Assembly: GCF_019320115.1 (NCBI RefSeq)
Contig: NC_089593.1
Location: 17,716,870 to 17,780,869, forward strand
Direction: 5' to 3'
Length of the DNA stretch: 64,000 nt
Origin: Miscanthus floridulus
Taxonomy: Eukaryota; Streptophyta; Magnoliopsida; Poales; Poaceae
The notes under the pieces were generated by a model, which was not told where the DNA came from, made no database searches, and saw only the letters and a list, made by a program, of their open reading frames with translations. The position numbers and the translations under genes were made by a program. Positions 1,598 to 48,406 of this stretch are shown one piece after another (the stretch's first letter is position 1; the number at the start of each line of letters is the position of its first letter).

Positions 1598-4500
1598 TGT
1601 AACACCCCCGGTGTTTATGACCAGCATTTGGGCACTACAAATCATGCATATTATGCATCATTAAGCATCCTAATCATACATGCCTAATCATGTAAATAAT
1701 AACTGAAACCCTGCTTCGAAACATATGAAACATGCTCGCGAAACATGAATGTTGCATACACTTGTTTAGAGTTGTTTTTGCCCTAATTATGCTTGCTAGG
1801 TTAATAAAACATGTTTGGCTATGATTGTAAATCATCTAGAATTATTTAGCACAAGTTTTGGAGCAAAGTTTGTATTTAAATTATTACCAAATTTTACTTT
1901 AAGAATAACTCTCCAAAATTAAGGTTTTGAGTTAAAAATTGACTTTAATTTTATAATTCAAAATCTAGCAAGAATTGGACTTTGGTCATAAAAGCAAAGT
2001 TGTAGAGGATTAAATTCTAAGCCATTTTTATTTTTGGGACATTTTCAAAAGATGTCATTTTCTTGCTCAAATGATTTTTGAAAACTGGTATTTGAAAATT
2101 TCTTAAAAATAGAAATTGAGAAAAATGTTTTCTCCTTTCGCGGGCCGTCGCCTCCTTTCTGGCCCACCAGCCAAAGCCGGCCCACGTGTCACACCGTCCC
2201 GCGCTGCGCTCGCCTCCGCCCAGCCCAGCTCGTGCGGCAGCCACGGCCTGCCTCCGCTTCCACGTGCCCGCCTTCATCTGCTGACCCCGCCGCCCTCGCT
2301 TTCACTCTCCCACGCTGCCTCTCTGCTTCGCCCGCATCGAGCTCGCTCTCTCCCCCTCGCCGCGGCCACCGCGCCATTCCCGCAGCCGCCGAGCTCCACC
2401 TTGGCGCGCCAGCAGCTCTTGCCCACACTGCTGCAGCTCTGCGCTCGTCTTCGTCACCAGCACGGAGAAGGTAGTGGCCACAGGCCCTTTCACTTCTTCC
2501 CTTCTCGCTCTCCCGTGCGCCCCCGCTCGTCAGAGCTCAGCTCTGTGTTGATGGCGCCGCTCCGCCTTCTCTCTCTCCTCCTCTTCTCGCGCTTCGGGTC
2601 CGCCGTTGCCTTGCCGTGCTCATGTGCGCCTCACCGGACCGCGCCATAGCCGGTTTGGAAAATGTTTGTGTGCTCATTTTGGCTCCAAATTTGTTGAAAC
2701 AAATTTTTCTAGGTTCCTTGTCACCAGATCTACATGATAAAAATATTGCATATCATTTTTGGGATACTTTTATGTAGAGCTTTAATTAATTCTTCATATT
2801 GCTGATATCTTGTAAAATGGTTAGTAAATCCTATATGCATCAGAAAAATAGGATTTCCAAGTTTGTTACTCTTCTTGTGTAATGTACTTCCTAGGAAAAA
2901 TATGTGTCATGCATGTACTGTAGAAAAATTATGAGGTGTAGTTCAAGTGCCTTTAATGGCTGATTTTTGTTATTTTTGCTAGAGAGCAAAATTTGTACAA
3001 AACATGCATGTGATAATTTTTATACAGTGATTATTTGTTTGTAGAACATAGGAAAAATATTTCATCTGTTGTTTGACACTTTTCAGAGTACAAAGTATTT
3101 TCATGCTCATAATCATACCATAGCTTGTTATGTTTGTGTAGGCTAATCCATTCATTCAAATACCATAAAATCTGCTGGTAGACTACTTAGGGTAGTACTG
3201 AGCTAGGGTAATTTTCTAAGATTTTTCTGAGCTATAAAAATAGATGTTGTTATTCGAACCTATTATTAACTAGGGTTAACCAAATGTTACTTTGTGTATG
3301 CTTAAGGAATTAATGAAGCTTTGGTGTATCTTTGAAGCATTTAATGAGATGTGTTAACTTGGCATATTAGTAGTAGAAGAGAATATAGTAGATGACATGT
3401 GCTTGTAGTATATGTTCTTGGATGATGTTGACTACCTCGCATTCAAGCATATCCATTGTATTCATCTCATCCGATGCACCGATTGCATAAGCACTTACGC
3501 ACATTGCATCATACAGGATCGCAAATCGAGAATCCAGTCGTCATACCCTAGGAGCCCGAGGAGCAGCTCAAGGTGCAGCCGCAGAAAGTGCCCGAAGCCG
3601 ACGAGGAGGACATTGAGGAACTTCTGGAGTGCCCCGATCATCGCCCGAGCTCCTTCGAGAGAGGCAAGCCCCGGAGCATTTTCTCCCCAGTTTGCAATTA
3701 TTAATTAAATGCTTTCCTTTAATTGATGCATTACATTCAGGAGTTGTTTGCAACCGTTGCTGCATTATACCTTGTCTACCTTTGTTATACTATATCCTTG
3801 TTACCCTAGTATCTGCCGTCGAGTCAATGCTTAGCTGGCTTAGACCGGTAGAAGTCGGGTGATTTCCTGTCACTTGCGAGCTATAGGTGGTTACCTGGAT
3901 CTGCTTGGATGACTATGAAGTCATGGTATAACTAAGTGTTAAATGAAGTTGAGACCAGACAGAGACTTATAGAGTTTTGGACTGTAGTGCTTTCCGTCTG
4001 TGTCGATTAAGGACCGACCGTTGTTGGGCCTCGAGTCTTGTTGAACGCATGCCTTACATTTAGCTGGCCGAATAAAGTACCTTTCGACCATGAAGCTGGG
4101 AGATTATTCGGGCCGAGTAGATTGCCCGCAGCGCACTGTGCCGGAGCAGGTGTGGTAGGACATGGGGGCGAGATGATAAGACCAAAGTGCAGTCGGTTGG
4201 CCCCCGGGTACATGTGGTTCCTAGCAAACTCGAGATTCCTAGATAGTTGACTCGGTGACCGATACCTCACTTTAGCGGGTGAGTGAGGTTTGTGTAAGGA
4301 ATAAATCACCAGCTGGTTAGGAATCGATTCGAATCGTCATCGCTCCTGGATAGTTGGCACTTGACTTGAGTTACTTCATCGTAGTAATGTTGATGGAACA
4401 CTTGGACAGTTATAATGAATATGACAATATGGAAGTTGTTAATGATCATTGGTTATCATTATCTGCTTAATCACATGTTTGCTCTAGTGTAGGTGCAAAT

Positions 4501-5135
4501 CTAGTCGACAGGTTATAAATAATTAACTTGACAATAATGCTTTTAGAAAGGTTCTTGAAATGCTAAAAATGCTTCTTTTTGCAAATGAGTCAACTACCCT
4601 ACCATAAAGCCCTTCATAATCCTTGGTGTCACTTATTTTCGGTTATGTCGGGTAAGTCTAGCTGAGTACCTTCGCGTACTCAGGGTTTTATTCCCACTTG
4701 TTGCAGATGGGCAGATGTATTACGGCTACTGTATCAACAGCCTTTATCCTGCGATGGGTGATGCTTAGGACCATGGGCATAGTCATTCCTTACGTCTCGT
4801 CTGATGCTTTTGTTGGAGATGATCATTAGCTGGCACTGTATTTAAATTCCGTGTGAGTGTGTGTGGTTTTGAACAAATGGCTTCCGCTACTTCTATTTAA
4901 ACTCGTTTTGTAATAACTATGTTTAAACTCTGATGTATCTGAGATGCGAACTTTTTATGTAATATGTGATGGTGATCGCTAGACTTATTATGATCTTGGC
5001 TGGTATGTGAGTTGGTTTGAAAATCCTTCGCGATTTCACGAACTACCGGGTTATACGGGCTTAAGTTTATTAAATCGTCTGCGCTGGCGGATGATTTTCT
5101 TACTTAATTTCGTATAATTGGTCGGTTCTGTTACA
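1598..5135 (+). repeat. 5' LTR of element B (3538 bp)
   Basis: Starts TGTAACACC and ends TCTGTTACA (imperfect terminal inverted repeat TGTAACA/TGTTACA). It aligns along its length to 24135-28111. Two blocks present in the 3' LTR are missing here: about 95 bp at about 2231 (3' LTR about 24770-24865) and about 345 bp at about 2651 (3' LTR about 25286-25630). Otherwise the copies differ by scattered substitutions and small indels. A GC-rich block (about 2130-2650) is embedded in otherwise AT-rich LTR and looks like a CpG-type promoter or leader. The open frames inside it are best read as compositional, not as genes. Confidence 0.9.
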
Positions 5136-5149: not shown

Positions 5150-5924
5150 ATAGTTTAGCGTGTTACTGTTCACAAGTGTATTTAAAACAAAAAGGCATTT
5201 GAAAAACGTGATTTCCAAACTAAAAAGTGTGCCAGTGGTCATATCCTTTATGCCCAGTTAAGGACTTTAGGTGGCTTAATTAAGTACTGACTTGGGGTTA
5301 TTGCATCATATTCTCTTTCGTCGCTCATACGGCGTGCTATTGTATGAGTGTCGCTTATATTGAGTGGTAGTGTATGGATCAATTGCCTCTGTGCCTCGGT
5401 AAGTGTGAGTTGTGAGAGCATGATCGGATACACCGCCGATCTAGGGTGAATGCTTATATGATGCTGGAGTAATTACATGTTCTACGCATGTTTTTTAAAG
5501 GTATCTCATGTATGGGTATTCCGTCTGTTGAGGCGATGCCGTCAATAGGACGATGGTTCAGGTAGTTACTACCATTGTACACATATCTGGGGATTCGTGT
5601 AGAGCGTATAGCTAACATTTACTGCTTTTATGCATCCATTGGGAATTGGGCTAAAATGAATTTTCTGTAGGTACATAACAACGCTATCGTGTAGAACGTA
5701 TTAGCTACGTAATTGAGAGATCGTTTGTATGCCACCGAATTCGTCACTAGAAATTATTTATTTCATAAGTTTGTGAGAACGTACAGCACGTACATACATC
5801 ATATTACTTGTGCATTTCATTCATGTCATGCATTCCTCCCCTTATAAATTGATTATCTCTTTTTGATAAAAGTGTATCACCTAAAATATGTTTCCACGGG
5901 GTAATAAAAGAATTTTTGCTACAG
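5150..5924 (+). other. Untranslated leader of element B
   Basis: No convincing coding sequence lies between the PBS and ORF0. The last bases before the ORF0 ATG (AATTTTTGCTACAG) look like a splice acceptor, so the leader may contain an intron or be used for a spliced ORF0 mRNA. This is inference only. Confidence 0.4.
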
Positions 5925-6914
5925 ATGGCCCACACGAAGCAGACCGCCCGTAAGTCCACCAGAGGAAGAGCACCTCGACGTCCGTTGGCCCTGAGGGAGC
6001 ACCGCACCACAGACACCTTCTTGAGCGAGTTTGGCATGCCAACCTTGCTTTGGAGAGTGCTCCATGATGTGGGGTACCTAGAGGGTCAAGAGCCGGTGTA
6101 CTCTTGGAATGAGAGCCAGTTAGCAGAGGATGGACTTGCAGTGGTAGAGATCACGGTTCCTGCTCTCAGTGATGCTCTAGATTGGGATGGTTGGCACTTG
6201 GAGTTTGAGGGTCGCACTCCTGCTGAGGGTGCAGAGGGAGCAGCTTTCCGTGTCATTAGGGATATCATGAGCAGATTTCCTAGTGAGCTTGCAGCAGCTC
6301 TAGCTAGCACCTTTCCTAGAGGTGATCCTCGTGATGCCATTTGGGTTCAGCCTCAGGGAAGTGCCTTGGTCAGAGGTCCAGCTGAGGGATAGGCTAGCGA
6401 CAATCATGCTATGAGTGCTATGTTCGCCGCCATCAGAGCGTATGAGGGTCTTGAGAGTACCTACTGGACTTTGACTGGCTTACGTGGTCATGATAAGCAC
6501 AAGGGGAGAAAGCAGAAGAAGAGACAGGCACATGCTATTGCTAGTTTGCAGGAGCAGTTGGCTGATATGAACTTACAGCGAAACCAGGCGGTTGAGAGAG
6601 GTGATAGAGCTATGCAGCGGGTGCATACGTTGACTCAAGCCAACAACAATGCAGACCGCATGATTGGACAGTTGGTTCAGGAGAGGAATGAAGCCTGGGA
6701 CGAGAGGGACCTTCTGCTGTAGAGGGTCGATGAGCTAGAGGAGTACAACATCAACCTGCATGAGGAGTTTCACGCGCTCTATAATGGGGTTGGCCCATAT
6801 GCTCCTCCAGACGCCACTGGCATGGACATCGACGACGACAATGAGGATGAGCCTGTAGTTTCACCTAGGGGCGATGGTGATGTCTCCGACCCTGACAACA
6901 GCCCCGAGGAGTAG
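5925..6914 (+). pseudogene. ORF0 of element B: histone-H3-tail-like N-terminus, coiled coil, acidic C-terminus; two in-frame stops
   Basis: One reading frame of 329 codons starts at ATG 5925 and ends at TAG 6912-6914, interrupted by TAG at 6390-6392 and 6720-6722. Residues 2-22 align with the mature histone H3 tail at 16 of 21 positions, including the block TKQTARKST (H3 T3-T11, with K4, K9 and S10). H3 R2 is His; K14 and K18 are Arg. After the tail comes a globular-looking acidic/hydrophobic domain (about residues 30-150), a basic patch (HDKHKGRKQKKR, about 6493-6528), a coiled coil (about 6540-6765), and a Pro/Asp/Glu-rich tail with DIDDDNEDE (about 6829-6855). There is no resemblance to the histone fold beyond the tail. 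Known: RIRE3-type elements carry an ORF0 of unknown function. Inferred: a chromatin-mimic or structural protein. An upstream in-frame TTG is not needed, because ATG 5925 aligns exactly with the H3 start. Confidence 0.8.
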
Positions 6915-7271: not shown

Positions 7272-8405
7272 ATGCAGATGACAAATACTCGCCGTACCAC
7301 GTATGAGGCCGCTGAGCCCAGTGCTAACGGTGCGGGGACCGGTGGTGGTGGTGGAAACCACGGCAACAACAATGAGCCTCCCTATGAACCGCATTTGCCA
7401 CCTCCTCCCCCGTTTACCCTAGAGATGTTCCTCGCACAGTTGCTCGGAAGTCAGCGCAACACAAAACAATCCCAGAAGAACATGGAGGATTTTCTGCGTA
7501 CCATCGCCAACAACGTTCAGCGCGGTAACAATCAGGGTGGTGGCATTTGGGTGAATCAATATAGCAGCTTCAAAGATTTTATGGACACCAGGCCACCAAT
7601 ATTCAAGGAAGGAACAGAGCCACTCGATGCTGAGGAATGGATCAACACTATGGAAGATAAATTCCGTGTGTTGAGGATGACTAAGGTATTGAAAACGGAG
7701 TATGCTGCACATCAGTTGCAAGGACCAGCGGGAATGTGGTGGAAGCACCATCGCACCACCTTCCCTCCAAATGCTCAGATTTCGTGGAGAGAGTTCGCTG
7801 AGGCCTTCCGTGGAGTTTATATTCCACCTGGGCTAACCGAGATGAAGTTGGGAGAGTTCTTGGCGTTGAATCAGGGCACCAAGACCGTGATGCAATATTT
7901 GCATGCCTTCAACAACTTGTGTCGTTATGCTCCAGACATGGTTGACACCGATGCTAAGAGAATCGCTAGTTTCAAGAGGGGACTCAATCCAAAGATGATG
8001 AAGCATGTGGGTACCAACAACCGCGTCAGATTCAATGACTTCATCGACGATTGTTTGAAGCAGGAAAAGAACAACAATGCCAGCACTGCAGCCAAGACTC
8101 GCAAGAGAGCCCTAGAAGGTGGTCCGTCCCAAGCAAGAGCACCTGCGGGAGGTCATCCTCCCTATCGTCCATCAGCACCTGGCGCTAGGTTCAGGCCACC
8201 TTAGCAGAGAAGTCAGAATTTCTATGGACCCCAGAAGCCTTACAAGATGGCAGTACAGCCCAACAAGGCAGCCGCAACTGCGGTACAAGGCAGTTCTAAG
8301 GGAGCTATGGGATCTACTGGGACAGTGAGGGGACCCTGCTATAATTGTGACCAACCCGGCCACTTCTCAAGGTTCTATCCTTATCCGCCCAAGAAGCAGC
8401 AGTAG
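7272..8405 (+). pseudogene. gag of element B: capsid and zinc knuckle, two in-frame TAG stops
   Basis: The frame opens at ATG 7272 (second ATG 7278). It encodes a Gly/Asn/Pro-rich N-terminus, then a typical retrotransposon gag domain: FKDFMDTRPPIFKEG (about 7570-7614), AEEWINTMEDKF (about 7630-7665), the WW dipeptide region (about 7738), and the LGEFLALNQG region (about 7846). A basic linker follows, then a CCHC-like knuckle at about 8338-8379 (CYNCDQPGHFSRFY) in which the final Cys is Tyr, so zinc binding should be lost. TAG at 8202-8204 cuts the frame before the knuckle and TAG at 8403-8405 follows it; both read as CAG-to-TAG changes in a Gln-rich context. The frame continues without shift into protease, so Gag and Pol were originally one polyprotein. 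Confidence 0.88.
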
Positions 8406-10950
8406 ACTTATAATGCTAGGGTGCATAGTATGACTGTGGATGAAATTCTTGAGGGAGAGCCCGTAACCGCTGGTAAGTTTCCTGTCAATGAAAACCCTGT
8501 AGTTGTTCTATTTGATTCTGGATCTTCGCATTCTTTTATGAGTCAAGCATTTGCACAGAAACATGAACAACTATGCATAGAATTGGGTTATGGTTACCGT
8601 ATAAGTTCAGCAGGGGCTGATGTTTTGACCAATCGGATGGTTCGAGGGGCAACCCTTGAATTAGGTAGCAGAAAGTTTCGAGTAAACTTGATAGTTATGC
8701 TTGGACTAGTTTTGGATGTCATTATAGGGATGAATTGGATGAAGGATTGGGGAGCAGTCATAGATACCGGAAGTTGGGTACTTACCCTTAAGGATCCCCT
8801 GGGTGAGGGTACTTTCCAAGTACCATTGCCCCAGAGAACAGACCTTATAAGTGTGACATGTGCTACTGAAGTTATTCCTATTCATCAAATTCCGATAGTG
8901 TGTGAGTTTCCGGATGTATTCCCGGATGAGCTACCTGGTCTTCTGCCAGATAGGGATATTGAGTTTGGAATTGAGTTACTCCCCGGAACAGCTCCGATTT
9001 CAAGGAGACCCTATCGGATGCCTCCCGATGAATTAGTTGGGCTGAAGAAGCAACTAGAAGAGTTATCAAAAAAGGGGTTTATCCGGCCAAGCAAGTCTGA
9101 ATGGGGATGTCCCACCTTGTTTGCAAAGAAGAAGCAAGAGGGCACGTTGAGAATGTGCATGGATTACAGGCCACTTAACGTTGTAACCATTAAGAATAAG
9201 TATCCCTTGCCTCATATTGATGTTCTGTTTGACCAGTTAGCCAAGGCTAAGGTGTTCTCAAAAATAGATTTGAGATCCGATTATCATCAGATCAAGATTA
9301 GGCCACAAGATATACCGAAAACTACATTTTCCACCAGATATGGGTTGTATGAGTATCTTGTCATGTCCTTTGGCTTGACAAATGCTCCTGCATACTTTAT
9401 GTTTTTGATGAATACAGTTTTCATGCCAGAATTGGATAAGTTCGTGGTTGTGTTCATCGATGACATTCTGGTGTACTCCAAGAACGAGAAGGATCATGAA
9501 GAGCATCTGAGAATTATCTTGACCAGACTTAGAGATCATCAACTGTATGCTAAGTTTAGCAAATGTGAATTTTGGTTGAAGAAAGTTCCTTTCCTTGGTC
9601 ACATTCTGTCAGAAAATGGAGTTTCAGTCAATCCAAGTAAGGTGCAAGAGGTTATGGATTGGAAGGCACCGACCACAGTTCCTGAGATTAGAAGTTTCTT
9701 AGGATTAGCCGGTTACTACCGTCGTTTTATACCAGACTTCTCAAAAATTGCCAAACCTATGACAAGTCTGCTACAGAAGGATCACAAGTTTGTGTGGACA
9801 GAGGAGTGTGAAGCAGCTTTCCACACTTTGCGGAAACTGTTGACCACTGCTCCTATTCTTGCACAACCGGACATTGAGAAACCATTTGATGTGTTTTGTG
9901 ACGCATCGAAAACTGGATTGGGCCGTGTTCTTATGCAAGAAGGAAGAGTCATTGCTTATGCCTCACGTCAATTGAGAAAGCACGAGGTCAACTATCCAAC
10001 ACATGATCTCGAACTTGCTGTAGTTGTGCATGTCCTAAAAATTTGGAGACATTATCTACTTGGTAATGTGTGCAATATTTTCACGAATCACAAGAGTCTC
10101 AAGTACATCTTTACCCAACTAGAGCTGAACATGAGACAGCGTAGATGGTTGGAATTGATCAAGGATTACAACTTGAATGTGCAATATCATCCTGGAAAAG
10201 CCAATGTAGTGGCAGATGCTTTGAGCAGGAAGTCACATTACTTGAATGTGCAGCCATTACTTGAAGATGGGTTCGATCTGATGCATCCTGCTATGTCACA
10301 CAGTATTCAGATTAGTTGCTCTTTGGAGAGTAAGATAATAGAAGGCCAAAAAACCGACAAAGGGATATTCCACATCAAAGAGAAAATAAAAGACAAGCCA
10401 TCAAAGCACTTTAAAGTGGATGAACAGGGCGTGTTGTGATTTGACGACCGTCTTGTGGTTCCCAAGGATTGAGAGCTTAGGAATAAACTCATGGATGAAG
10501 CTCACCTTTCTAAGCTATCTATCCATCCGGGAAGTAGTAAGATGTATCAAGAACTAAGACCTCGTTATTGGTGGACCAAAATGAAGAAAGAAATTACAGC
10601 ATATGTTGCCAGATGTGACACATGTTGTAGAGTGAAAGCTATTCATATGAAACCTGCCGGTTTGTTGCAACCTTTGTCCATACCTAGTTGGAAGTGGGAT
10701 GATATAAGTATGGATTTTATCTCGGGTTTGCCCACTACTCAAAAGGGACATGATTCGATTTGGGTGATTGTGGACCATCTTACTAAGACCGCTCATTTCT
10801 TGCCTGTCAAGACAGAATATTGACCACCTCAATATGCCGACAAGTATATCACAGAAATTATGAGGTTGCATGGTATACCAAAGACTATAGTATCTGATAG
10901 AGGGCCACAGTTCACGGCTCACTTTTGGGGACATTTACACAAAGGCTTAG
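8406..10950 (+). pseudogene. pol of element B, 5' part: protease, RT, RNase H, N-terminal half of integrase
   Basis: Same frame as gag. The aspartic protease has its catalytic DSG at about 8514 ([12 protein letters not shown]). The reverse transcriptase spans about 9000-9700, with [23 protein letters not shown] and the active-site FIDD at 9453-9464 ([13 protein letters not shown]). RNase H follows at about 9870-10230 (DASKTGLG). The integrase zinc domain is at about 10500-10640 (HPGS then CDTC), with the first catalytic Asp in MDFISGLP (about 10712) and the second in IVSDRGPQF (about 10890). TGA stops occur at 10437-10439, 10470-10472 and 10821-10823. The reading phase is kept throughout. Coding is broken at 10950 by element C, between the second catalytic Asp and the Glu of the integrase triad. 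Confidence 0.93.
10946..10950. repeat. Target-site duplication of element C, left copy (CTTAG)
   Basis: CTTAG at 10946-10950 is repeated exactly at 23284-23288. Removing the bases between the copies keeps the integrase frame of B in phase. Confidence 0.9.
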
Positions 10951-12493
10951 TGTCGGTGTTTCGTACGAGCATCGGCAAGTAAATTTATAGTAATGCGCGT
11001 TAGGCTCGGATGGTGCGCTAAAGGACATAAGATTTATACTGGTTTGGGCTGAATGTCCCTACGTCTAGTTTGTTGCTGCTCATGTTATTAGCACCGTGAA
11101 CTGTCTGTAGTAAGGGGTACAAACGATCGAGAGAGGGACTGGTCCCAAGTCTCTGATGGAAGGGTTGAAAGGAGGTCAAGAGCTTCGTAGCCGCTTGACT
11201 GTGTGTATGTGTCTTCTTGTTCGGTTCCAAAAGTCCATCCCTTTGATGGAGGAAGCGCATCCCATTTTATAGATGAAGGGGCTAGCTTTACAAGGGTGAG
11301 GGCTTTAGGACACGTACTCTACTTAGTCTTGTGGCTCACGTCTACCCGGCCTGGTTCTTCATTTTGATGAGTGCGAAGGAAGATAAGCGCCTACAATACT
11401 GTCGATGTCTCTGTAGAATGTCAGGTTGGTTACAGAATGCTGCCCTACGCAGGGTATGGGCTGCAGTATAGTGGTTTTGACTTATGAGCCTCCCCCAGCC
11501 TTGCTCCGCACGCCTTCTAGTTCTCATGAGTCTTCGTCAGAGGGATGCGGGGTCAGGGTCCGGAGTAGCGCCGTGGCCAAGGTCTTCTGGCTTGGTAGAC
11601 CTAAGGGGCCGGGAAGCGGGCGCCGCTCCCTTGGGTCCATAGCACGGTGACGGAATATCCTTCGTTCGTGGAGATAGCAAATCCTTTTCTAGAGCGTAGC
11701 GGTTGTCGTATATCTTCATTGGGTTCCGTGTCCCAGAGCTGAAGGCGGCGCCTACAACTCTACAGGGCGAGGAGCACGCACCTGTAATACCTTTCGGGCT
11801 CTGCGGCGCCCGGAAGGGTCTAAAGCACCTGTCCCGTCGTTCCCTGGCAGTACTTTTCCTGCCAGGGCACAGGGTATGGTCCTTGGAGCCATGGTTGACC
11901 CAAACATCTTGTCCTGCCCTGTACCCATCATCCTCAAAGGCATCGGGTGAGGCGGCGACTAGCCCTGAGCCCTCGGGCGAGACCGTGCCCGCCCCAAAGG
12001 TGTCGGGCGAGATGGAGACTAGCCCTGAGCCCTCGGGTGAGGCAGAGCTACCCCAAAGGCGTCGAGCGAGGCGAAGACTAGCCTTGAGCCCTCGGGTGAG
12101 ACCGTGCTTGCCCCAAAGGCGTCGGGCGAGGTGGAGACTAGCCCTGAGCCCTCGGGCGAGACCGTGCCCGCCCCAAAGGCGTCGGGCGAGGTGGAGACTA
12201 GCCCTGAGCCCTCGGGCGAGACCGTGCCCGCCACAAAGGCGTTGGGCGAGACGGAGACTAGCCCTAAGCCCTCGGGTGAGACCATGCCCACCCCAAAGGC
12301 ATCGGGCGAGACGGAGACTAGCCCTGAGCCCTCGGGTGACGCAGGGCTACCTCAAAGGCATCGGGCGAGGCGGAACCGAACTCCTATCATTCGAGCAAAG
12401 GATGCTACGGCACCCTTATCCGTCCAGAAGTTTTTAACGTTTGGTGGTTATTGGTTCCACCATCTAGGGTACCCCGGTATTAGGTCCCCGACA
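10951..12493 (-). repeat. 3' LTR of element C (1543 bp, only LTR of this copy)
   Basis: The LTR has terminal inverted repeats TGTCGG / CCGACA. Orientation follows from the minus-strand pol genes and from the purine-rich tract just inside it at 12494-12512. It contains a 60-bp minisatellite. Without a second LTR the boundaries rest on the inverted termini and the CTTAG duplication. Confidence 0.8.
11937..12372. repeat. 60-bp tandem repeat inside LTR of C, about 7 copies
   Basis: The block GACTAGCCCTGAGCCCTCGG recurs at about 11957, 12017, 12076, 12136, 12196, 12256 and 12316, a period of 60 bp with one 59-bp step. Because 60 is a multiple of 3, long open frames with 20-residue repeats appear in several frames on both strands. 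These are a by-product of the period, not evidence of a gene. Confidence 0.93.
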
Positions 12494-12512
12494 GTAGCCC
12501 CCGAGCCTCCAG
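12494..12512 (-). promoter_or_regulatory. Polypurine tract of element C
   Basis: The minus strand reads GGAGGCTCGGGGGCTAC directly before the LTR end (TGTCGGGG). This is the expected place and composition for the plus-strand DNA primer of a Ty3/gypsy element. Confidence 0.6.
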
Positions 12513-12645
12513 GTAATTCAGATAGAACCGCCTGGAGGGTGCTTTTCGATTTTGTCGGAGTTACTTTGCCAGAGGGTGTGCGCGAGCGCACCCGATGGGT
12601 GTAGCCCCCGAGCCTCCAGGTGATTTGGATAGAATCACCTGGAGG
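12503..12645. repeat. Two tandem hairpins next to the polypurine tract of C
   Basis: A unit starting AGCCCCCGAGCCTCCAGG occurs at about 12497 and again at about 12604. The second copy holds a perfect 13-bp stem (CCTCCAGGTGATT, 12613-12625, with its complement 12633-12645) around a 7-base loop. The first copy holds the same stem with mismatches. Confidence 0.8.
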
Positions 12646-13075
12646 GTGTTTTCGGACCCTTCGCGGGTAAGGCTGAAGTACTTAGTTTTTCATCAACTGG
12701 ATATTTTTCGAGGGGGTCATGGTGTCCTGTTCGTGGGGATCTCATTCAGGGCTGACCTAGCCGGGGCTTGACCATGGATCGAGACCCTAGTAATGCTTGC
12801 GCCCTTGATTTCGGATCGTTCACTGATCTATCCTTAGTTGGGCCGGACGCCGAGCTTCTGGGTCCTAGGTGGGCCAAATAGAAAAAATCTTCGTGACCTG
12901 CCTTTCCCCGGTGGGAAGAGAGTCCGGATTTGCCTGGGGAAGGCGAACCGTCCACCGTGATTTTTGGTGGGGAAGGATAGGGACTGCGAGCACGTGTCCC
13001 GCGACGTGACGTGGCGGTGCGCGTGGTAGGCCCAGAAATCGAGGCGGACGGTTGCCCTTCTCGCGTCCGTCGCCC

Positions 13076-13083
13076 CTATAAAA
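13076..13083 (+). promoter_or_regulatory. TATA box of the antisense gene of element C
   Basis: CTATAAAA sits in a GC-rich context about 200 bp upstream of the aORF ATG (13285) and is followed by a C/T-rich leader. Together with the aORF downstream, it supports an independent antisense promoter inside the element. Confidence 0.6.
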
Positions 13084-13284
13084 CCACGGGGTTCGCCCCC
13101 AAGGTTCCGTATTTCACTCCCCTGCCTTTGCGTTCTAAAACATCCGCCGTCAATCGCCCCAGCCTCCTACGCCCGCATCGCCACCATCGACTGGCTTGCG
13201 TTTGTGTTTACAGCCACCGTCAAGCTTGCGCCTGCCCCGTAGTCACTGTCGAGCTCGCGCCCACCTTTCTCCCCAATTGCTTTG

Positions 13285-16200
13285 ATGGAGTTGTGGGGCA
13301 GATCTAGCATCACCCCACGGCATTTGGAGGGCCTCATCTGCCGCGGCCTTCTCCGCCCACTATCCGCCGTCCAGGAGTGGCTGCTACCTGGCGACGAGGG
13401 TGAGCCGGTGCCGCCCGATGGGTATGTCGTTTCTTTTGCCATCTTCCACGAGCGGGGATTCGCGGTACCCGCGCATAGATTTCTTCGGGGGCTGCTGGAT
13501 TATTATGAGGTGGAGCTACAGCATCTAACTCCCAACGGGGTTCAACACATGGCGGCATTTGTTGCCCTGTGCGAGGGTTTCCTAGGGATCGATCCCCATT
13601 TTGATTTGTGGCGGTATTTCTTTAACATTAGTTTGTCGAAGAGGAAGATTGGGGGGAAAGATGTGAACGCGCCAATGGGATGTGCCAGCATTCATCTGTG
13701 CCATACCCAGTCGAGGGGTTATCCATACATGCGTCTGGCGACATCCAACAAGGGATGGCACTCGCAGTGGTTTTATGTTAGGGACGATGCGAGTGCCACC
13801 CTTCCGAGGTACACTGGATGCCTTATTCAAGAAGCTCTAGAGTCGTGGAGCTGGGGCGTCCAGTCCAAAGACAAGAAACACCTCTCCGACCTTCTTTCCA
13901 CCCTTCAAGCCCTGAAGGATCGGGGTGTAAAGGGGACGGGGATTATCGGCGCCTATCATGCAAGGAGGGTGGTGCCGCTGATGGCGCGCGTGGTCCCCCC
14001 TGCATCGGATGACGCCCAGAATGTCATTCGGGGGGACGGTGCTTGTTGATGAGGCACTCCCTTTTTCAGAAGTGGCGCAGCGCATTAAGGAGGCGATGGA
14101 GCCGATGAAGGATTCCAAAGGCAGCGTCCTTGACATTGTGTATCCAGTGCCCGGACATCCCCCAATGCGGCCAGAACCTGGGTTCTTTGAATTCATAAGC
14201 CCCCTTCTCCTGTGCTCTTTTCTTTCTCCTAAATCTCCATTTTTTAATACTTGCTTTTTTGACGTTGGGACCAGCCGAGGGGGCTTGTCTTCAAGGATAG
14301 TCCGGTTCCACTGCCAAAGGACAAGGCCATGGCGGCGGCGAATCGACTCGCGGCCGAGCGGGACAAGAAAGCAAGGGAGGAGATGAAGAAGGCGAAACGA
14401 CTGAAGCAGGAGGCACAGCATCGGGGGGAGGACGTGAGCAGTGAGGATGATGATGATGACGATGACGATGATGACGAGGTAGCCGTCGGCATGGATTGGG
14501 ACGTCCTGGAGGACGAGGACACGTTGACAAGTGGTCGCCCGTCCATGCAGGGACCCTTCCCGTTCCACGCAGAGGAAAGTGAATCGGTGAGGTCGGTGGA
14601 GGCCGGCGAGTCCACCGCTTCGCACGGCGTGCCGGCCGAGGACCGGTGGATGGAGGAAAGTGGGCCTACCGCTGCCGACCCCGAAGCGATGGGGGAGGGG
14701 AGTGGCTCTAGTGCCGCGCCCCATGAGACGATGGAGGGGAGTGGCTCTGGTGCCGCACCCCACGAGGTGAGCCCCCCTGCCCTGGAGCAGGGGGTAGGCT
14801 CGAAACGGTCCCGCCCAGATGAGCCGGGGCAGGGATCTAGGGATCCGTCCCCAAAACGCTTCCACCGGCCGAGGACGTCAACATGAGCTGCTGATTCCTC
14901 TGTTTTCATCCTTTTTCCATTTCTATTTTGATCTAATGATTAATACCTTTGTGTAGGTTCTTGCGGACGGGTCACCCCCTGGGGCTGGCGCCCAAGAAGA
15001 GTCTCGCCATTCAAGTGGGATAGATGGCGTCGCCTGGCGTCACCCCTATTTCGGGCGGGAGTGGTGCCGATGTCGGGTCTACGTTGGCCAACCCGACGAT
15101 GTCTGTGGTGGCACCCACGCCCGTGGAGGTTACTGAGCAGGCAGCCTCCTCCATGGCGGATATGGTACAGCTGGCCGAGGGCCGCATATCGCCAGTGGAG
15201 GTGGTCATGACCGCGCCAAGCCAGGATCAGCCGGGCGCGGTCGTGGTGGCACTCGAGGGCGTAGTGCAATCCGCGCCACCGGGGGCCCAGGTGGATCCGC
15301 TCGTGGCGCTCGAAGTGGCCCAGACGGAAGAGGGTCCAGCCGGAGGGTCCTCGAGTGCAGTGGTGGTGCCGCATAGGGTCAGGAGGGAGCCGCCCATGGC
15401 CCCTTTCTTGGGAGGAAGCCGCTCTCCCGCGCGGGGGGAGCCGCCACTTCAGTGGATGGCCGCTCGGGACCCAACGTCGGCTCTTTTCTCGCTCGATGAT
15501 CATTCCGAGAGCATGGAGCGGGAGGGTCTTGACATTAGAATTTCGACCATGCTGGAGGCCCTCGACTAGGCCAGAGGAGCCCTGCGTGAAATCGTCGTTC
15601 CTACTACCCAGGTATTCGCTTGATTTTCTTCTTTCTCCACATGTTTTTGTGTTTTCGCATTTCTGATTCCAGTCTTCTTCCTCTTCAGGTTCTTGTTGCT
15701 CATAGCCGGAATAAATCCCGATTCCTCCGCGAGTAGAAGGCGGAGTGGGATCGCCTCTCCGAGGAGGCCCGGCTGCGAGTAGACATGGCCGCACAGCTTG
15801 CTACCGCCCAGGAGCGGGAGGCCCAGGCATGTCAAGACGCGGAGGAGGCCCATGGGATGTTCGAGGATTTGTCGGCGAGGTCCAAGCTGGATGGGGAGGA
15901 GATCACCAGGCTCCAAAAGGAGCGAGACGAGCTGCTGCAGAGGAACGCCGCAGCTAATGAGAAGGCCAGCGAAGTCCTGAAGGAGCTAGAGATGGAGCGG
16001 GACCTCCGGCGGAAGGCCGAGAGTAGGGCCACGGCCCTCCAGCAGAAGGTGGACGAGGACGTCGAGGTGGTCCGCTCTCTCCGGGCAGAGCTCGGTGATG
16101 CGGTGAGCCGAAGGTTGAACGCCGAAAACGTCTTTGTCAGGCTGGAAAAAGAGGCTGCCCATGCACGAAGGGCCCTTCAGGTTGAGAGCGATGAGCACGA

Positions 16201-16525
16201 TCTTCTGCAAGCTACGGTCGGGGTGGTCCTTAATGCCCTGAATGTGGTGGAGCCGGTGGAGACCAGCCCGCCCGCGGCTCGTGCCGCTGGTATCACGGCT
16301 CGGGTGGGCCAGCTTGAGGAGAGTGCTTTTCACGCCGGGATCACCCAGGCCTTCATCGTTGCCCATGCTCATTACGAGAAGGAAATCAACCTAAAGGTGA
16401 TGAGCGAAGGTTTCCCGTCCACCTATGAGGATGAAGAGCTAGAGGAAATGGAGAAGATGGTTGCTCCCCTTGCGAAAAACCTAGCGGATAGTCTTAAAGA
16501 GATGGTTCTCCCTTCGTGGGAGTAG
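13285..16525 (+). pseudogene. Antisense ORF (aORF) of element C, 'putative gypsy-type transposon' (PF04195-like), multi-exon
   Basis: Exon 1 (ATG 13285) encodes the conserved domain: SSITPRHLEGLICRGLL, then VSFAIFHERGFAVPAHRFLRG, PNGVQHMAAFVALCEGFLG, FFNISL, and WHSQWFYVRDD. A one-base insertion in the G run at about 14033-14038 shifts the frame; the protein continues in the next frame to about 14205. Further exons by eye: about 14272-14886, with KK/E-rich residues and a run of ten Asp at 14447-14476; about 14956-15611; and about 15690-16525, an all-helical coiled coil. In-frame TAG stops lie at 15567-15569 and 15734-15736. Known: Tat elements carry this gene antisense between pol and the 3' LTR; its role is unknown. 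It lies in the same relative place as the plus-strand gene of element A. Exon limits are inferred from GT-AG sites. Confidence 0.75.
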
Positions 16526-19500: not shown

Positions 19501-19614
19501 CCCCCGAGTGAGGTCTGACCCCTCGCCACTTGCAGGGGTCGGAAGTCACTAAGGATTGGGGTTTTGTTATGACAAAATCTGATAAGGAAGAGTGTAAGCT
19601 TATTTTAAGGATAG
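16526..19614. other. Non-coding linker of element C between aORF and integrase 3' ends
   Basis: No credible long gene. It contains dispersed copies of an 'AGCCCCCGAGTrAGGTCTGACCCC...GGGGTCGG' unit (about 16738, 17950, 19500) and a short direct repeat around 18745-18850 (GGCGTAGTCCCC...GATGCCCT twice). A TATA-like TTTAAATAGG near 18391 with a C/T-rich leader could drive a short plus-strand transcript. Open frames here (for example 18546-18989 on the minus strand) show no recognisable domain. Confidence 0.5.
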
Positions 19615-22600: not shown

Positions 22601-23283
22601 AACGGGATTCGCTAACCACTCTGGGTGGTATACTTCCTTGATGAATCCTACGACCAGCAGTTTGGCTATCTCCTCGCCGATGGCCCTGCATTTCTCTTCG
22701 TCGAAGCGGCATAGGCGTTGCTTTACCGGCTTGGAGCCCGGGAGGATCTAGAGAGTATGCTCGGCGACCTCCCTCGGGATGCCCGGCATATCCGAGGGTT
22801 TCCACGCAAAGATGTCTTTGTTGTCAAAGAGGAAGTCGACGAGTGCGCTTTCCTATTCGGAGGAGAGCGCGGTCCCGATACGGACTTTTTTGCCCTCGGA
22901 GCTGCTGGGGTCCAAAAGGACCTCCCTGGAGCCTTTTGCCGATTCGAACGACCCGGTTGATTTCTTCGCGTTGGGTGCCTCTTCAACGACCTCTTCCCTG
23001 AGGGTGGCGAGCTCTTCGGAGGCGATGACTGCGGATGCGTGTCTGCAGCATTCGACTTCGCACTCGTAAGCACGCTGGAAGGAGGTGCCGATGGTGATGA
23101 CCCCACGGGGACCCGGCATCTTCAGCTTAAGGTACGTATAATTGGGGATGGCCATGAACTTCACGTAGCATGGTCGTCCTAGGATGGCATGGAAAGTCCT
23201 CGGGAACCCCACTACGTCGAAGGTGAGGGTCTTGGTCCGGTAGTTGGACCGATCCCCGAAAGTGACGGGCAGATCGATCCCCA
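19615..23283 (-). pseudogene. pol of element C: partial protease, RT, RNase H, integrase
   Basis: Read right to left. The protease C-terminal part starts abruptly at 23283 (IDLPVTFGDRSNYRT, then ILGRP at about 23180). RT covers about 22850-21900 with VCVDY-type WRMCVDYTGLNKACPK (about 22570), LDAYSGYHQIAM (about 22450) and the active site AYVDDIVVKS (about 22260). RNase H spans about 21750-20950, with its catalytic Asp in MYFDGSL (about 21410) and the NTAEYEALINGL block (about 21300). The integrase runs from about 20900 down and ends with NAWNIEQLRRFYP near 19620. Several TAG/TGA stops interrupt it, for example near 21418 and 22200. The whole N-terminal Gag and the catalytic Asp of the protease are missing because the copy is truncated, not decayed, at that end. 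Confidence 0.88.
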
Positions 23284-23288
23284 CTTAG
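23284..23288. repeat. Target-site duplication of element C, right copy (CTTAG)
   Basis: Exact repeat of 10946-10950 directly after the truncated end of element C. Confidence 0.9.
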
Positions 23289-24139
23289 GAACTAGTTTGA
23301 TTCGTAGTACCGCTTATCATCCTCAGACAGATGGTCAGACTGAACGAGTGAATGCTGTTTTGGAGGATATGTTAAGAGCCTGTGTGTTGTCTTCTAAGGG
23401 ATCATGGGAGTCATGGTTACCATTAGCTGAGTTTGCTTACAATAATAGTTATCAAGAGAGCATCAAGATGGCTCCATTCGAAGCTTTGTATGGCAGAAAA
23501 TATAGAACACCACTACATTGGGTCGAGCCAGGAGATAGAAGGTATTATGGCATTGACTTTGTAGAAGAAGCCGAGAAGAAAGTTCATATTATTCAGCAAA
23601 ATATGAAGGTGGCCCAATCACGTCAGAAAAGTTATGCAGACAGAAGAAGGAGACCTCTTGTATTTGAAGTTGGTGACTATGTTTATCTGAAGGTCACACC
23701 AATGAAGAAGAAAAGGTTTGGAGTCCGAAGAAAGCTTGCCGCTAGATTCGTAGGACCATACAAGATCTTGGAAAGAAGAGGTCCAGTAGCTTACAATTTA
23801 GAGTTACCTGAGACAATGAGTACCGTCTTCCCAGTTTTCCATGTATCACATCTCAAGAGGTGTTTGCGTGTTCCGGAGGAAAGAATAGAACCTCGAGGCA
23901 TCCAACTCAAATCAGATTTGGTGTATCGTGAGCAACCGGTCCGTGTGTTAGACACTAAAGAACGTGCTACTCAGAATAGTGTGGTGAAAACATACAAGAT
24001 ACAGTGGAATCATCATGATGAGGGAGATGCAACTTGGAAAACAGGACTATATCTACAAAAAGCTTATGAAGATTTTTATAACAAATGGTTCGTAACCCAA
24101 ATCTCAAGACGAGATTTTTATAAGGGGGGAGGGCCGTAA
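23289..24139 (+). pseudogene. pol of element B, 3' part: integrase C-terminal half and chromodomain
   Basis: This resumes the integrase frame broken at 10950. It contains the catalytic Glu region (HPQTDGQTERVNAVLEDML, about 23308-23364), the FAYNNSYQ block (about 23430), ALYGRKYRTPLHW, and the GPY/F-type segment FVGPYKILERRGPVAY. A chromodomain follows at about 23935-24100 (RVLDTKER ... YKIQWNHHDEGDATWK). Of the three aromatic-cage positions of HP1 chromodomains only the Trp is evident. Tekay-type chromodomains are known to be of this incomplete-cage class. No stop occurs before the natural TAA at 24137-24139, which overlaps the first bases of the 3' LTR. Confidence 0.92.
24122..24134 (+). 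promoter_or_regulatory. Polypurine tract of element B
   Basis: AAGGGGGGAGGG lies immediately upstream of the 3' LTR and overlaps the last pol codons. Confidence 0.75.
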
Positions 24140-27100
24140 CACCCCGGTGTTATGACCAGCATTTAGGCACTGCAAATCATGCATATTATGCATCATTAAG
24201 CATCCTAATCATACATGCCTAATCATGTAAATAATAACTGAAACCCTGCTTCGAAACATATGAAACATGCTCGCGAAACATGAATGTTGCATACACTTGT
24301 TTAGAGTTGTTTTTGCCCTAATTATGCTTGCTAGGTTAATAAAACATGTTTGGCTATGATTGTAAATCATCTAGAATTATTTAGCACAAGTTTTGGAGCA
24401 AAGTTTGTATTTAAATTATTACCAAAATTTACTTTAAAAATAACTCTCCAAAATTAGGGTTTTGAGTTAAAAATTGACTTTAATTTTATAATTCAAAATC
24501 TAGCAAGAATTGGACTTTGGTCATAAAAGCAAAGTTGTAGAGGATTAAATTCTAAGCCATTTTTATTTTTGGGACATTTTCAAAAGATGTCATTTTCTTG
24601 CTCAAAATGATATTTGAAAACTAGTATTTGAAAATTTCTTAAAATAGAAATTGAGAAAAATGTTTTCTCCTTTCGCGGGCCGTCGCCTCCTTTCTGGCCC
24701 GCCAGCCGAAGCCGGCCCACACGTCATGCCATCCCGCGCTGCGCTCGCCTTGGCCCAGCCCAGCTCGTGCGCACGGCCTGCCTCCGCGCTACACCGCGTC
24801 GCGTCCCAACCAGCGCCAGAGCGCGACCGCCGCGTGGCGACCATGCGCCGGCGACGCCCGTCACGCAGCAGCCACGGCCTGCCTCCGCTTCCACGCGCCC
24901 GCCTTCATCTGCTGACCCTGTCGCGCTCGCTTTCACTCTCTCGCACTGCCTCTCTGCTTCGCCCGCACCGAGCTCACTCTCTCCCCCTCGCCGCGGCCAT
25001 CGCGCCATTCCCGCAGCCGCCGAGCTCCACCTTGGCGCGCCAGCAGCTCTTGCCCGCACTGCTGCAGCTCCACGCTCGTCTTTGTCACCAGCACGGAGAA
25101 GGTAGTGGCCGCAGGCCCTTTCGCTTCTTCCCTTCTCGCTCTACCGTGCGCCCCTGCTCGCCGGAGCTCGGCTCCGTGTTGACGGCGCCGCTCCGCCTTC
25201 TCTCTCTCCTCCTCTTCCCGCGCTTCGGGTCCGCCGTTGCCTTGCCGTGCTCGCGCGCGCCTCACCAGACCGCGCCATAGCCGGTAATGGCCAGCACGCC
25301 GCGAGGCAGCGCCGCCGCTCCGCCATTGCCGTCGGCAAGCTTTGCTCCGGTGAACCGCCCCTCCCTTTTCACCTCTACCCGACGCGGCTTGGCGTGGGGA
25401 GCATGTTGGTGCCCTCCGTTTCGCCGGGGAACCTCGCCATCGGCGAGTGCGCACCGGTCAGCGCCGCCCCTGCTTCGGCCTGGCCGACAGGTGGGGTCGT
25501 TGACCCACGAGGGCCCGCTCGTCAGCGCCCTGGCTCGGGTCCGGGTGCACAGCACCGGGTGCACCCAACACTTTCGTCAGCGGAAGTTTAACAGGATTTC
25601 AAAAATGATTTTCAGATTCCTACTTAAATGCTTTGGAAAGTGTTTGTGTGCTCATTTTGGCTCCAAATTTGTTGAAACAAATTTTTCTATGTTCCTTGTC
25701 ACCAGATCTACATGATAAAAATATTGCATGTCATTTTTGGGATACTTTTATGTAGAGCTTTAATTAATTCTTCATATTGCTGATATCTTTTAAAATGGTT
25801 AGTAAATCCTATATGCATCAGAAAAATAGGATTTCTAAGTTTGTTACTCTTCTTGTGTAATGTACTTCCTAGGAAAAATATGTGTCATGCATGTACTGTA
25901 GAAAAATTATGAGGTGTAGTTCAAGTGCCTTTAATGGCTGATTTTTGTTATTTTTGCTAGAGAGCAAAATTTGTACAAAACATGCATGTGATAATTTTTG
26001 TACAGTGATTATTTGTTGTGTAGAACATAGGAAAAATATTTCATCTGTTGTTTGACACTTTTCACATTACAAAGTATTTTCATGCTCATAATCATACCAT
26101 AGCTTGTTATTTTGTGTAGGCTAATCCATTCATTCAAATACCATAAAAATCTGCTGGTAGACTACTTAGGGTAGTACTGAGCTAGGGTAAATTTCTAAGA
26201 TTTTTCTGAGCTATAAAAATAGATGTTGTTATTCGAACCTATTATTAACTAGGGTTAACCAAATGTTACTTTGTGTATGCTTAAGGAATTAATGAAGCTT
26301 TGGTGTATCTTTGAAGCATTTAATGAGATGTGTTAACTTGGCATATTAGTAGTAGAAGAGAATATAGTAGATGACATGTGCTTGTAGTATATGTTCTTGG
26401 ATGATGTTGACTACCTCGCATTCAAGCATATCCATTGTATTCATCTCATCCGATGCACCGATTGCATAAGCACTTACGCACATTGCATCATACAGGATCG
26501 CAAATCGAGAATCCAGTCGTCATACCCTAGGAGCCCGAGGAGCAGCTCAAGGTGCAGCCGCAGAAAGTGCCCGAAGCCGACGAGGAGGACATTGAGGAAC
26601 TTCCGGAGTGCCCCGATCACCGCCCGAGCTCCTTCGAGAGAGGCAAGCCCCGGAGCATTTTCTCCCCAGTTTGCAATTATTAATTAAATGCTTTCCTTTA
26701 ATTGATGCATTACATTCAGGAGTTGTTTGCAACCGTTGCTGCATTATACCTTGTCTACCTTTGTTATACTATATCCTTGTTACCCTAGTATCTGCCGTCG
26801 AGTCAATGCTTAGCTGGCTTAGACCGGTAGAAGTCGGGTGATTTCCTGTCACTTGCGAGCTATAGGTGGTTACCTGGATCTGCTTGGATGACTATGAAGT
26901 CATGGTATAACTAAGTGTTAAATGAAGTTGAGACCGGACGGAGACTTACAGAGTTTTGGACTGTACTGCTTTCCGTCTGTGTCGATTAAGGACCGACCGT
27001 TGTTGGGCCTCGAGTCATGTTGAACGCATGCCTTACATTTAGCTGGCTGAATAAAGTACCGTTCGACCGTGAAGCTGGGAGATTATTCGGGCCGAGTAGA

Positions 27101-28111
27101 TTGCCCGCAGCGCACTATGCCAGAGCAGGTGTGGTAGGACACGGGGGCGAGATGATAAGACCAAAGTGCAGTCGATCGGCCCCCGGGTACATGTGGTTCC
27201 TAGCATACTTGAGATTCCTGGATAGTTGACTCAGTGATCGATACCTCACTTTAGCGGGTGAGTGAGGTTTGTGTAAGGAATAAATCATCAGCTGGTTAGG
27301 AATCGATTCGAATCGCCATCGCTCCTGGATAGTGAGCACTTGACTTGAGTTACTTCATCGTAGTAATGTTGATGGAACACTTGGATAGTTATAATGAATA
27401 TGACAATATGGAAGTTGTTAATGATAATTGGTTATCATTATCTGCTTAATCACATGTTTGCTCTAGTGTAGGTGCAAATCTAGTCGATAGGTTATAAATA
27501 ATTAACTTGACAATAATGCTTTTAGAAAGGTTCTTGAAATGCTAAAAATGCTTCTTTTTGCAAATGAGTCAGCTACCCTACTATAAAGCCCTTCATAATC
27601 CTTGGTGTCACTTATTTTCGGTTATGTCGGAGAAGTCTAGCTGAGTACCTTCCCGTACTCAGGGTTTTATTCCCACTTGTTGCAGATGGGCAAATGTATT
27701 ACGGCTACTGTATCAACTGCCTTTATCCTACGATGGGTGATGCTTAGGACCATGGGCATGGTCATTCCTTACGTCTCGTCTGATGCTTTTGTTGGAGATG
27801 ATCATTAGCTGGCACTGTATTTGAACTCCGTGTGAGTGTGTGGTTTTGAACAAATGGCTTCCGCTACTTCTATTTGAACTCGTTTTTTAATAACTATGTT
27901 TAAACTCTGATGTATCTGAGATGCGAACTTTTTATGTAATATGTGATGGTGACCGCTAAACATATTACGATCTTGGCTGGTATGTGAGTTGGTTTGAAAT
28001 CCTTCGCGATTTCACGGACTACCGGGTTATACAGGCTTAAGTTTGTTAAATTGTCTGCGCTGGTGGATGATTTTCTTACTTAATTTCGTATAATTGGTCA
28101 GTTCTGTTACA
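24135..28111 (+). repeat. 3' LTR of element B (3977 bp)
   Basis: Aligns with 1598-5135. It begins CGTAACACC, where the 5' LTR has TGTAACACC, and ends TCTGTTACA. It keeps two blocks of about 95 and 345 bp that are missing from the 5' LTR, including the longer GC-rich stretch to about 25590. A GC-rich plus-strand frame (from ATG 24660) is shared with the 5' LTR but has no recognisable domain. Confidence 0.9.
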
Positions 28112-28116
28112 CCGAG
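28112..28116. repeat. Target-site duplication of element B, right copy
   Basis: CCGAG, against CCAAG at 1593-1597. Confidence 0.7.
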
Positions 28117-48258: not shown

Positions 48259-48406
48259 CTGGCCATGACATATGCATGCCTCCCTCTACACAGCACACCA
48301 CCACCACCACTCTCCCTCCCCTCGCTGCCAATCTTTTGGCAAGAACCTCTCTTTCTATCTTCCGCGGTTAGCAGCTTTAGCATTCCTCCACACCACCAAG
48401 GCAAGA

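What the first reader, a model, noticed from the sequence alone, without database searches (positions are those of the whole stretch)
5925..5990. Retrotransposon ORF0 begins with a histone H3 tail mimic
Seen: residues 2-22 of ORF0 match the mature H3 tail at 16 of 21 positions, with TKQTARKST identical, so K4, K9 and S10 keep their exact spacing from the N-terminus. K14 and K18 of H3 are Arg here, which keeps charge but removes two acetylation sites; H3 R2 is His. Nothing after residue about 22 looks like a histone. Known: RIRE3-type elements have an ORF0 of unknown function, and short H3-like tails in viral proteins can be read by host chromatin enzymes. Inference: the ORF0 product could recruit or sequester H3K4/K9 writers and readers, or the element's own particles could be marked by them. 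I know of no description of this.
Basis: partly seen in the sequence, partly recalled or inferred. Interest (0 to 1): 0.9.

Follow-up and report, generated by a model that had tools for sequence, protein, structure and literature searches.

The report
Retrotransposon protein wearing histone H3 tail
A plant jumping-gene protein begins with a near copy of the tail of histone H3, found in every relative whose start could be read, with the silencing-mark lysine always present and the neighbouring lysines nearly always gone, which suggests that it baits the host's silencing machinery.

Summary
ORF0 of a Tekay-type LTR retrotransposon (5925-6914) starts with an H3-tail copy, 16 of 21 residues; the next best of 127,876 peptide windows scores 8. 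It is a family feature: in 73 N-termini (72 database proteins and the window; 129 of 202 proteins examined lacked the region), 71 match H3 at 13-20 of 22 residues; shuffles reach 10. K9 is kept in 73 of 73; K14 is K in 2, K18 in 0, K23 in 1. Between sequences the tail is about as conserved as the best-kept part of the domain behind it and far more than the linker. Two AlphaFold models show a disordered tail and a dsRBD-like fold; the full-length one adds a long coiled coil.
Best reading, function inferred: a histone mimic offering H3K9 writers and readers a K9 bait without the lysines that help switch on CMT3 and MET1.
'No description' is probably wrong: I recall, unread, a 2011 paper reporting partial histone H3 similarity of chromovirus extra ORFs; a 2024 paper reports a DRBM-like fold. 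The listings of my ten literature searches showed neither this residue pattern nor this mechanism.

The parts
1598..5135 (+). 5' LTR, about 3.5 kb, starts TGTAACAC and ends TGTTACA
   Evidence: Three blocks align with 24136-28128 at 97.3, 96.2 and 93.1 percent; ends read from sequence
5925..6914 (+). ORF0, 329 codons plus stop; two in-frame TAG in this copy (6390-6392, 6720-6722)
   Evidence: homologues
5928..5990 (+). histone H3 tail-like segment, residues 2-22 of ORF0; K9-equivalent codon at 5952-5954
   Evidence: 16 of 21 identical to H3; PDB profile hits to H3; present in 73 N-termini
6030..6284 (+). dsRBD-like folded domain, residues about 36-120
   Evidence: AlphaFold models of two relatives and structure comparisons; placed here by alignment
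6504..6779 (+). predicted coiled coil, residues about 194-285
   Evidence: weak Pfam match of a coiled-coil family, E 0.018, below its cut-off; helix 160-296 in the full-length relative P0046
6828..6911 (+). acidic C-terminal tail of ORF0
   Evidence: translation; acidic ends in P0002, P0020, P0036, P0046, P0094
7272..8204 (+). gag
   Evidence: Retrotrans_gag E 1.5e-18
8406..10979 (+). pol: protease, reverse transcriptase, RNase H, first part of integrase; reading frame lost from about 10980, probably by an insertion
   Evidence: Pfam RVP_2, RVT_1, RT_RNaseH, Integrase_H2C2; reading frames
23240..24139 (+). rest of integrase (start approximate) with a divergent chromodomain-like stretch at about 23939-24064
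   Evidence: translation; SH3_Tf2-1 E 8.9e-24; Chromo 13.1 bits, below its cut-off of 25.1
24135..28111 (+). 3' LTR, preceded by a polypurine stretch; flanks CCAAG (1593-1597) and CCGAG (28112-28116) agree at 4 of 5 bases

Best explanation
ORF0 is a histone mimic whose N-terminus probably comes from a host histone H3 gene. Shown: an H3-like tail at the exact N-terminus, disordered in the models, ahead of a dsRBD-like fold, a coiled coil and an acidic end; K9 invariant in 73 sequences; K14, K18 and K23 almost always replaced. Inferred: after removal of the first Met the free ARTKQTARKS-type tail is methylated at K9 by host H3K9 methyltransferases and engages H3K9me readers such as CMT3/ZMET2 and ADCP1. 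It lacks K18, whose readout activates CMT3, and the K14/K18/K23 positions whose doubly ubiquitylated forms stimulate MET1. It would occupy the machinery without triggering DNA methylation: bait without trigger. The coiled coil would present several tails at once, and the dsRBD-like domain, which lacks the usual RNA-contact lysines, would bind a protein partner, perhaps of the small-RNA pathway. The net effect would be weaker silencing of the element.
For: Tail in all 73 readable N-termini; K9 in 73 of 73, one of 4 invariant columns of 86; K18 kept in 0 of 73. Over 2267 sequence pairs mean identity is 0.75 in the tail, 0.75 in the best-kept domain part (32-61), 0.62 in the domain 32-86 and 0.37 in the linker. 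Among the four main subfamily consensuses, tail exceeds residues 32-61 in 6 of 6 pairs. dsRBD-like fold in models of two subfamilies; KKxAK-like lysines absent. GC3 of codons 2-12 is 0.91 against 0.54 from codon 23 on. CMT3/ZMET2 use bivalent readout of H3K9me2 and H3K18; mutating the K18-contacting residues of CMT3 largely abolished activation (PMC9256654, passages). H3 analogues doubly ubiquitylated at two of K14, K18, K23 raised MET1 activity 2-fold (PMC12474915, passages). ADCP1 contacts R2, K4 and K9me2 (PMC6318295, passages); ORF0 keeps R2 in 59, K4 in 46 (R in 26) and K9 in 73 of 73.
Against: No binding, modification or expression evidence. Loss of K14/K18/K23 may date to one founder and need not be adaptive; Arg or His at 18 might still be read by CMT3. 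T22, which ZMET2 also contacts, is lost as well (T in 2 of 73). R2 is His in this copy. The tail is not clearly more conserved than residues 32-61 over all pairs (higher in 1224 of 2267); in the six least biased sequences it is higher in 7 of 15 pairs. The subfamilies were formed from residues 23-90, so its 21-of-21 result is partly built in. Codons 13-22 have GC3 0.30, and 8 other 11-codon windows are as GC3-rich as the first. The MET1 effect was modest, VIM1 itself did not enhance MET1, and work cited there finds no H3 binding by the VIM1 PHD finger. The queries held the tail, which favours tail-bearing hits; 120 of 321 hits were listed. Foldseek gave no match at E 0.001 or better (best 7.7e-3) and also lists ribosome hibernation factors.
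Confidence: 0.37

Rival explanations
1. Chromatin tether: the H3-like tail, once methylated, is bound by heterochromatin readers and brings the element's particles or integration complex to heterochromatin, replacing the methyl-lysine reading that its chromodomain-like integrase end may lack.
For: The integrase end has only a weak Chromo match; type II chromodomains usually lack two of three cage residues and their partner is not known. ADCP1 is a multivalent H3K9me reader in heterochromatin.
Against: No evidence that ORF0 binds Gag or integrase. Loss of K14/K18/K23 has no obvious role in this model. Retrosat2 and homologues are described as dispersed and not concentrated in specific regions (PMC3485330 abstract).
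Confidence: 0.2
2. Basic nucleic-acid-binding or nuclear-import tail: the element took a ready-made basic, disordered peptide from H3 and only its charge matters.
For: Lysines 14, 18 and 23 are mainly Arg or His, so much charge is kept. Grass Tekay 5' ORF proteins were predicted nuclear (PMC11728184).
Against: Charge alone does not explain K9 in 73 and S10 in 70 of 73, or A7 (68), G13 (67), P16 (68) and L20 (68 of 73), nor the exact distance from the N-terminus.
Confidence: 0.2
3. Passenger relic: a captured H3 5' end that persists because it carries the start codon.
For: GC3-rich first codons; all tails may go back to one capture; no codon-level test of selection.
Against: Between the four main subfamily consensuses the tail is 0.76-1.00 identical while the linker next to it is 0.22-0.44 and residues 62-90 are 0.21-0.52.
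Confidence: 0.13

Closest known systems
5' extra ORF (ORF0, 5' aORF) of grass Tekay/Del chromoviruses: RIRE3, RIRE8, Retrosat2 (Gao et al. 2012, PMC3485330; abstract, three sections and passages seen)
   Same: ORF0 upstream of gag, LTRs of about 3 kb, gag-pol order
   Different: Its main text does not contain the word histone and it proposes hydrolase-type functions; here the N-terminus is an H3 tail followed by a dsRBD-like fold. I did not have the RIRE3 sequence to compare.
Chromovirus extra ORFs with partial histone H3 similarity (Steinbauerova et al. 2011, Genetica; abstract recalled, not read; citation)
   Same: As I recall it, the same class of grass elements and the same H3 resemblance, ascribed to transduction or recombination
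   Different: I recall no analysis of which residues are kept or of mimicry; could not be checked, paper not held
Tekay 5' aORF proteins of maize and sorghum with DRBM-like structure (PMC11728184, 2024; one section and passages seen)
   Same: Weak fold similarity to a DRBM protein (TM-score 0.35-0.37) and a suggested role in RNA silencing
   Different: No occurrence of histone in its main text; no tail described in what I saw
Influenza A NS1, RNA-binding domain plus short H3-like tail (review passages)
   Same: H3-like peptide on a protein with an RNA-binding domain, used to hijack chromatin factors
   Different: NS1's is a C-terminal, imperfect mimic without a free N-terminal amine; ORF0 has the tail at the true N-terminus over about 21 residues; no common descent implied
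PAF15, whose N-terminal VRTK resembles H3 ARTK (PMC8034647 passages)
   Same: Non-histone protein with an H3-like N-terminus tied to maintenance DNA methylation
   Different: PAF15 is ubiquitylated on two close lysines and so activates DNMT1; ORF0 has lost the H3 lysines 14, 18 and 23

Membership tests
Tekay/Del chromovirus (RIRE3 group) | Long LTRs and gag, protease, RT, RNase H, integrase order | tested here: met
Tekay/Del chromovirus (RIRE3 group) | Type II chromodomain at the integrase C-terminus | tested here: inconclusive
   Chromo 13.1 bits against cut-off 25.1; read by eye, one aromatic at the expected place (sequence)
Tekay/Del chromovirus (RIRE3 group) | ORF0 upstream of gag, same strand | tested here: met
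   ORF0 5925-6914, gag 7272-8204
Tekay/Del chromovirus (RIRE3 group) | Reverse transcriptase falls in the Tekay clade | not tested
   no reference sequences fetched
Histone H3 | Conserved N-terminal tail | tested here: met
Histone H3 | Histone fold behind the tail | tested here: not met
   H3 similarity stops by about residue 30; models show an alpha-beta-beta-beta-alpha domain instead
Histone mimic (viral or cellular) | H3-like peptide in a non-histone protein, kept by selection | tested here: inconclusive
   amino-acid conservation seen; no codon data
Histone mimic (viral or cellular) | Peptide is modified or bound by chromatin enzymes | not testable with these tools
   needs biochemistry
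dsRNA-binding domain (dsRBD) | Alpha-beta-beta-beta-alpha dsRBD fold | tested here: met
dsRNA-binding domain (dsRBD) | Basic KKxAK motif at the start of the last helix (motif recalled) | tested here: not met
   columns 99-104 are mainly P, x, E, G, A, x with at most 0.10 basic; column 105 is 0.68 basic
dsRNA-binding domain (dsRBD) | Match to the Pfam dsrm model | tested here: inconclusive
   not among the 25 families shown of 46 for 70 members at E up to 1, nor in the full lists for P0046, P0052 and P0128 at E up to 10

The most novel reading that the evidence does not exclude
Grass Tekay retrotransposons encode a two-headed anti-silencing protein: a captured H3 tail tuned to recruit H3K9 writers and readers while lacking the lysines that activate CMT3 and MET1, joined to a dsRBD-like domain that engages the small-RNA machinery. 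It would hit the histone, DNA-methylation and RNA arms of transposon silencing at once, and be a transposon-encoded histone-tail decoy.
Probability: 0.25. Interest if true: 0.92.

Novelty: new variant of a known kind. Interest (0 to 1): 0.7.

Why it matters
If true, an abundant class of grass transposons carries its own histone-tail decoy. That would explain a long-puzzling extra ORF, give plant epigenetics a natural H3-like tail in which K9 is uncoupled from K14, K18 and K23, and link H3K9 and RNA silencing in one parasite protein. It is testable with synthetic peptides.

Tried and rejected
Chance match: rejected. Quirk of one copy: rejected; of 72 relatives 33 match H3 better than the window copy, 12 equally and 27 less well (scores, window 17 of 22). 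Whole-histone capture: rejected, no histone fold follows. Docking of the tail onto the element's own chromodomain: set aside, because type II chromodomains usually lack cage residues. Canonical dsRNA binding: doubted, basic motif absent. VIM1 PHD finger as reader: weakened by work cited.

Led nowhere: searches for ORF0 relatives in viral and bacterial/archaeal contigs; whole-genome search of the window's assembly, never answered. dN/dS could not be done without DNA of relatives; the metagenome contig collection has a cap of zero and was not called. Folds not listed are not excluded.

Selection of the 73 N-termini: of 201 database proteins plus the window, 73 had at least 20 residues before an FLxEFGM-like anchor; 129 were dropped as starting later or lacking the anchor. 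P0018, among the dropped, has unrelated sequence upstream and no anchor, so it is no test. In the first two searches 6 of 6 proteins with the region have the tail, though those queries also held it, wholly or in part. Counts differ slightly between the ungapped count (K14 in 1 of 73) and the gapped alignment (2 of 73).

Full report
The observation. Translation of the + strand from 5925 reads MAHTKQTARKSTRGRAPRRPLA and continues to a stop at 6912-6914, with two in-frame TAG codons on the way. Residues 2-22 match mature histone H3 at 16 of 21. Among 127,876 windows of the six-frame translation the next best score is 8, and 20 shuffled sequences give 7 to 9. The H3 N-terminus finds this place by tblastn with E 1.7e-7.

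The element. Two LTRs (1598-5135 and 24135-28111) enclose ORF0, gag, protease, reverse transcriptase, RNase H and integrase. The integrase frame is lost at about 10980 and resumes at about 23240, ending in a weak chromodomain match. The flanks, CCAAG and CCGAG, agree at 4 of 5 bases. This architecture fits grass Tekay chromoviruses with an ORF0, such as RIRE3, RIRE8 and Retrosat2, described by Gao et al. 2012 (PMC3485330; sections read). I had no RIRE3 sequence and made no RT tree, so the family name is an inference.

The tail is a family trait. Three protein searches gave 201 database proteins. With the window copy, 73 of 202 extend at least 20 residues upstream of an FLxEFGM-like anchor, and all 73 carry the tail, two of them weakly (P0163 at 8 and P0184 at 11 of 22). 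The other 71 score 13 to 20 of 22; 14,600 shuffles reach at most 10. P0052 and P0103 differ from H3 in the first 22 residues only at K14R and K18R. Caveat: the third query contained the tail and only its best 120 of 321 hits were listed. In the first two searches, whose queries held the tail wholly or in part, 6 of 6 proteins with the region have it.

Which residues are kept. In the gapped alignment K9 is K in 73 of 73, one of four invariant columns of 86 examined. K4 is K in 46 and R in 26. K14 is K in 2, K18 in 0 and K23 in 1 of 73. S10 is kept in 70 of 73. Many other changes (R to H or C, G to R) look like methylation-driven decay of dead copies, which lysine codons escape, so invariance of K9 alone is not proof of selection.

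How conserved is the tail? Grouped by the sequence behind the tail, the proteins form four main groups (27, 19, 17 and 7 members) and three single ones. Consensus tails beat the domain in 21 of 21 group pairs there, but the groups were formed from residues 23-90, so this is partly built in. One search compares sequences without grouping: over 2267 pairs the mean identity is 0.754 in the tail, 0.747 in residues 32-61, 0.615 in residues 32-86 and 0.366 in the linker; the tail exceeds residues 32-86 in 1811 and residues 32-61 in 1224 of the pairs. Between the four main consensuses the tail (0.76-1.00) exceeds residues 32-61 (0.73-0.80) in 6 of 6 pairs. In the six least biased sequences the tail exceeds residues 32-61 in 7 of 15 pairs. 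So the tail is conserved like the best-kept part of the folded domain, across a variable linker; it is not clearly more conserved than that part.

Origin. The profile of ORF0 N-termini matches histone H3 chains of the PDB at E 1.3e-7, and all 60 shown of 130 are H3-type chains (same picture with a larger alignment, 60 shown of 146). Codons 2-12 have GC3 0.91 against 0.54 from codon 23 on, but codons 13-22 have 0.30 and eight other 11-codon windows of 317 are as rich; this is compatible with, not proof of, an H3-gene origin. Two divergent relatives extend the resemblance to about residue 26 (P0128, P0184).

Mechanism. CMT3/ZMET2 are activated by joint readout of H3K9me2 and H3K18; R17, L20 and T22 also make contacts (PMC9256654, passages). 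H3 analogues doubly ubiquitylated at two of K14, K18 and K23 raise MET1 activity 2-fold (PMC12474915, passages). ADCP1 reads K9me2 with contacts to R2 and K4 (PMC6318295, passages). ORF0 keeps the recruiting lysine and has lost the activating ones, hence the proposal of a bait without a trigger. All steps after the sequence pattern are inference. Founder effect, a simple basic tail, chromatin tethering and relic remain as rivals.

Prior art. The listings of ten searches of the held library showed no description of the tail or of a retrotransposon histone decoy. The library lacks most subscription journals. From memory, unread, Steinbauerova et al. 2011 reported partial histone H3 similarity of part of the chromovirus extra ORFs; the reference appears and the paper is not held. 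I therefore treat the resemblance itself as probably published, and the residue pattern, the combination with a dsRBD-like fold and the mechanism as additions.

Verdict.

Noticed in passing
5399-5924: A strong splice-donor-like TCG|GTAAGT at 5399 (25 of 3661 GT sites score at least as high) and TTTTTGCTACAG directly before the ORF0 start codon; 16 of 19 upstream ATGs lie between them, but no branch-point-like match was found in the last 60 bases. Of ten relatives with residues before the start Met or tail, nine have Q just before Met (P0134, P0136, P0137, P0148, P0150, P0156, P0176, P0199, P0202; not P0184). This may be a leader intron.
   Followed up: partly
10980-23240: About 12 kb lying within the integrase gene, containing a Transposase_28 (putative gypsy type) match at 13282-14046, a reverse-strand RNase H-like frame at 20600-21412 and a 60-base tandem array at 11935-12374.
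   Followed up: no
57422-58392 and 61995-62992: Two stretches of about 1 kb that match their own reverse complement at 89 and 92 percent, like large fold-back elements.
   Followed up: no
29560-30227: Tandem array of a 110-base unit, 6.1 copies, 92 percent matches.
   Followed up: no
54316-55866 (-) and 48272-49042 (+): Likely host-type genes: a pentatricopeptide-repeat protein with E motif, and a B3 DNA-binding domain protein.
   Followed up: no
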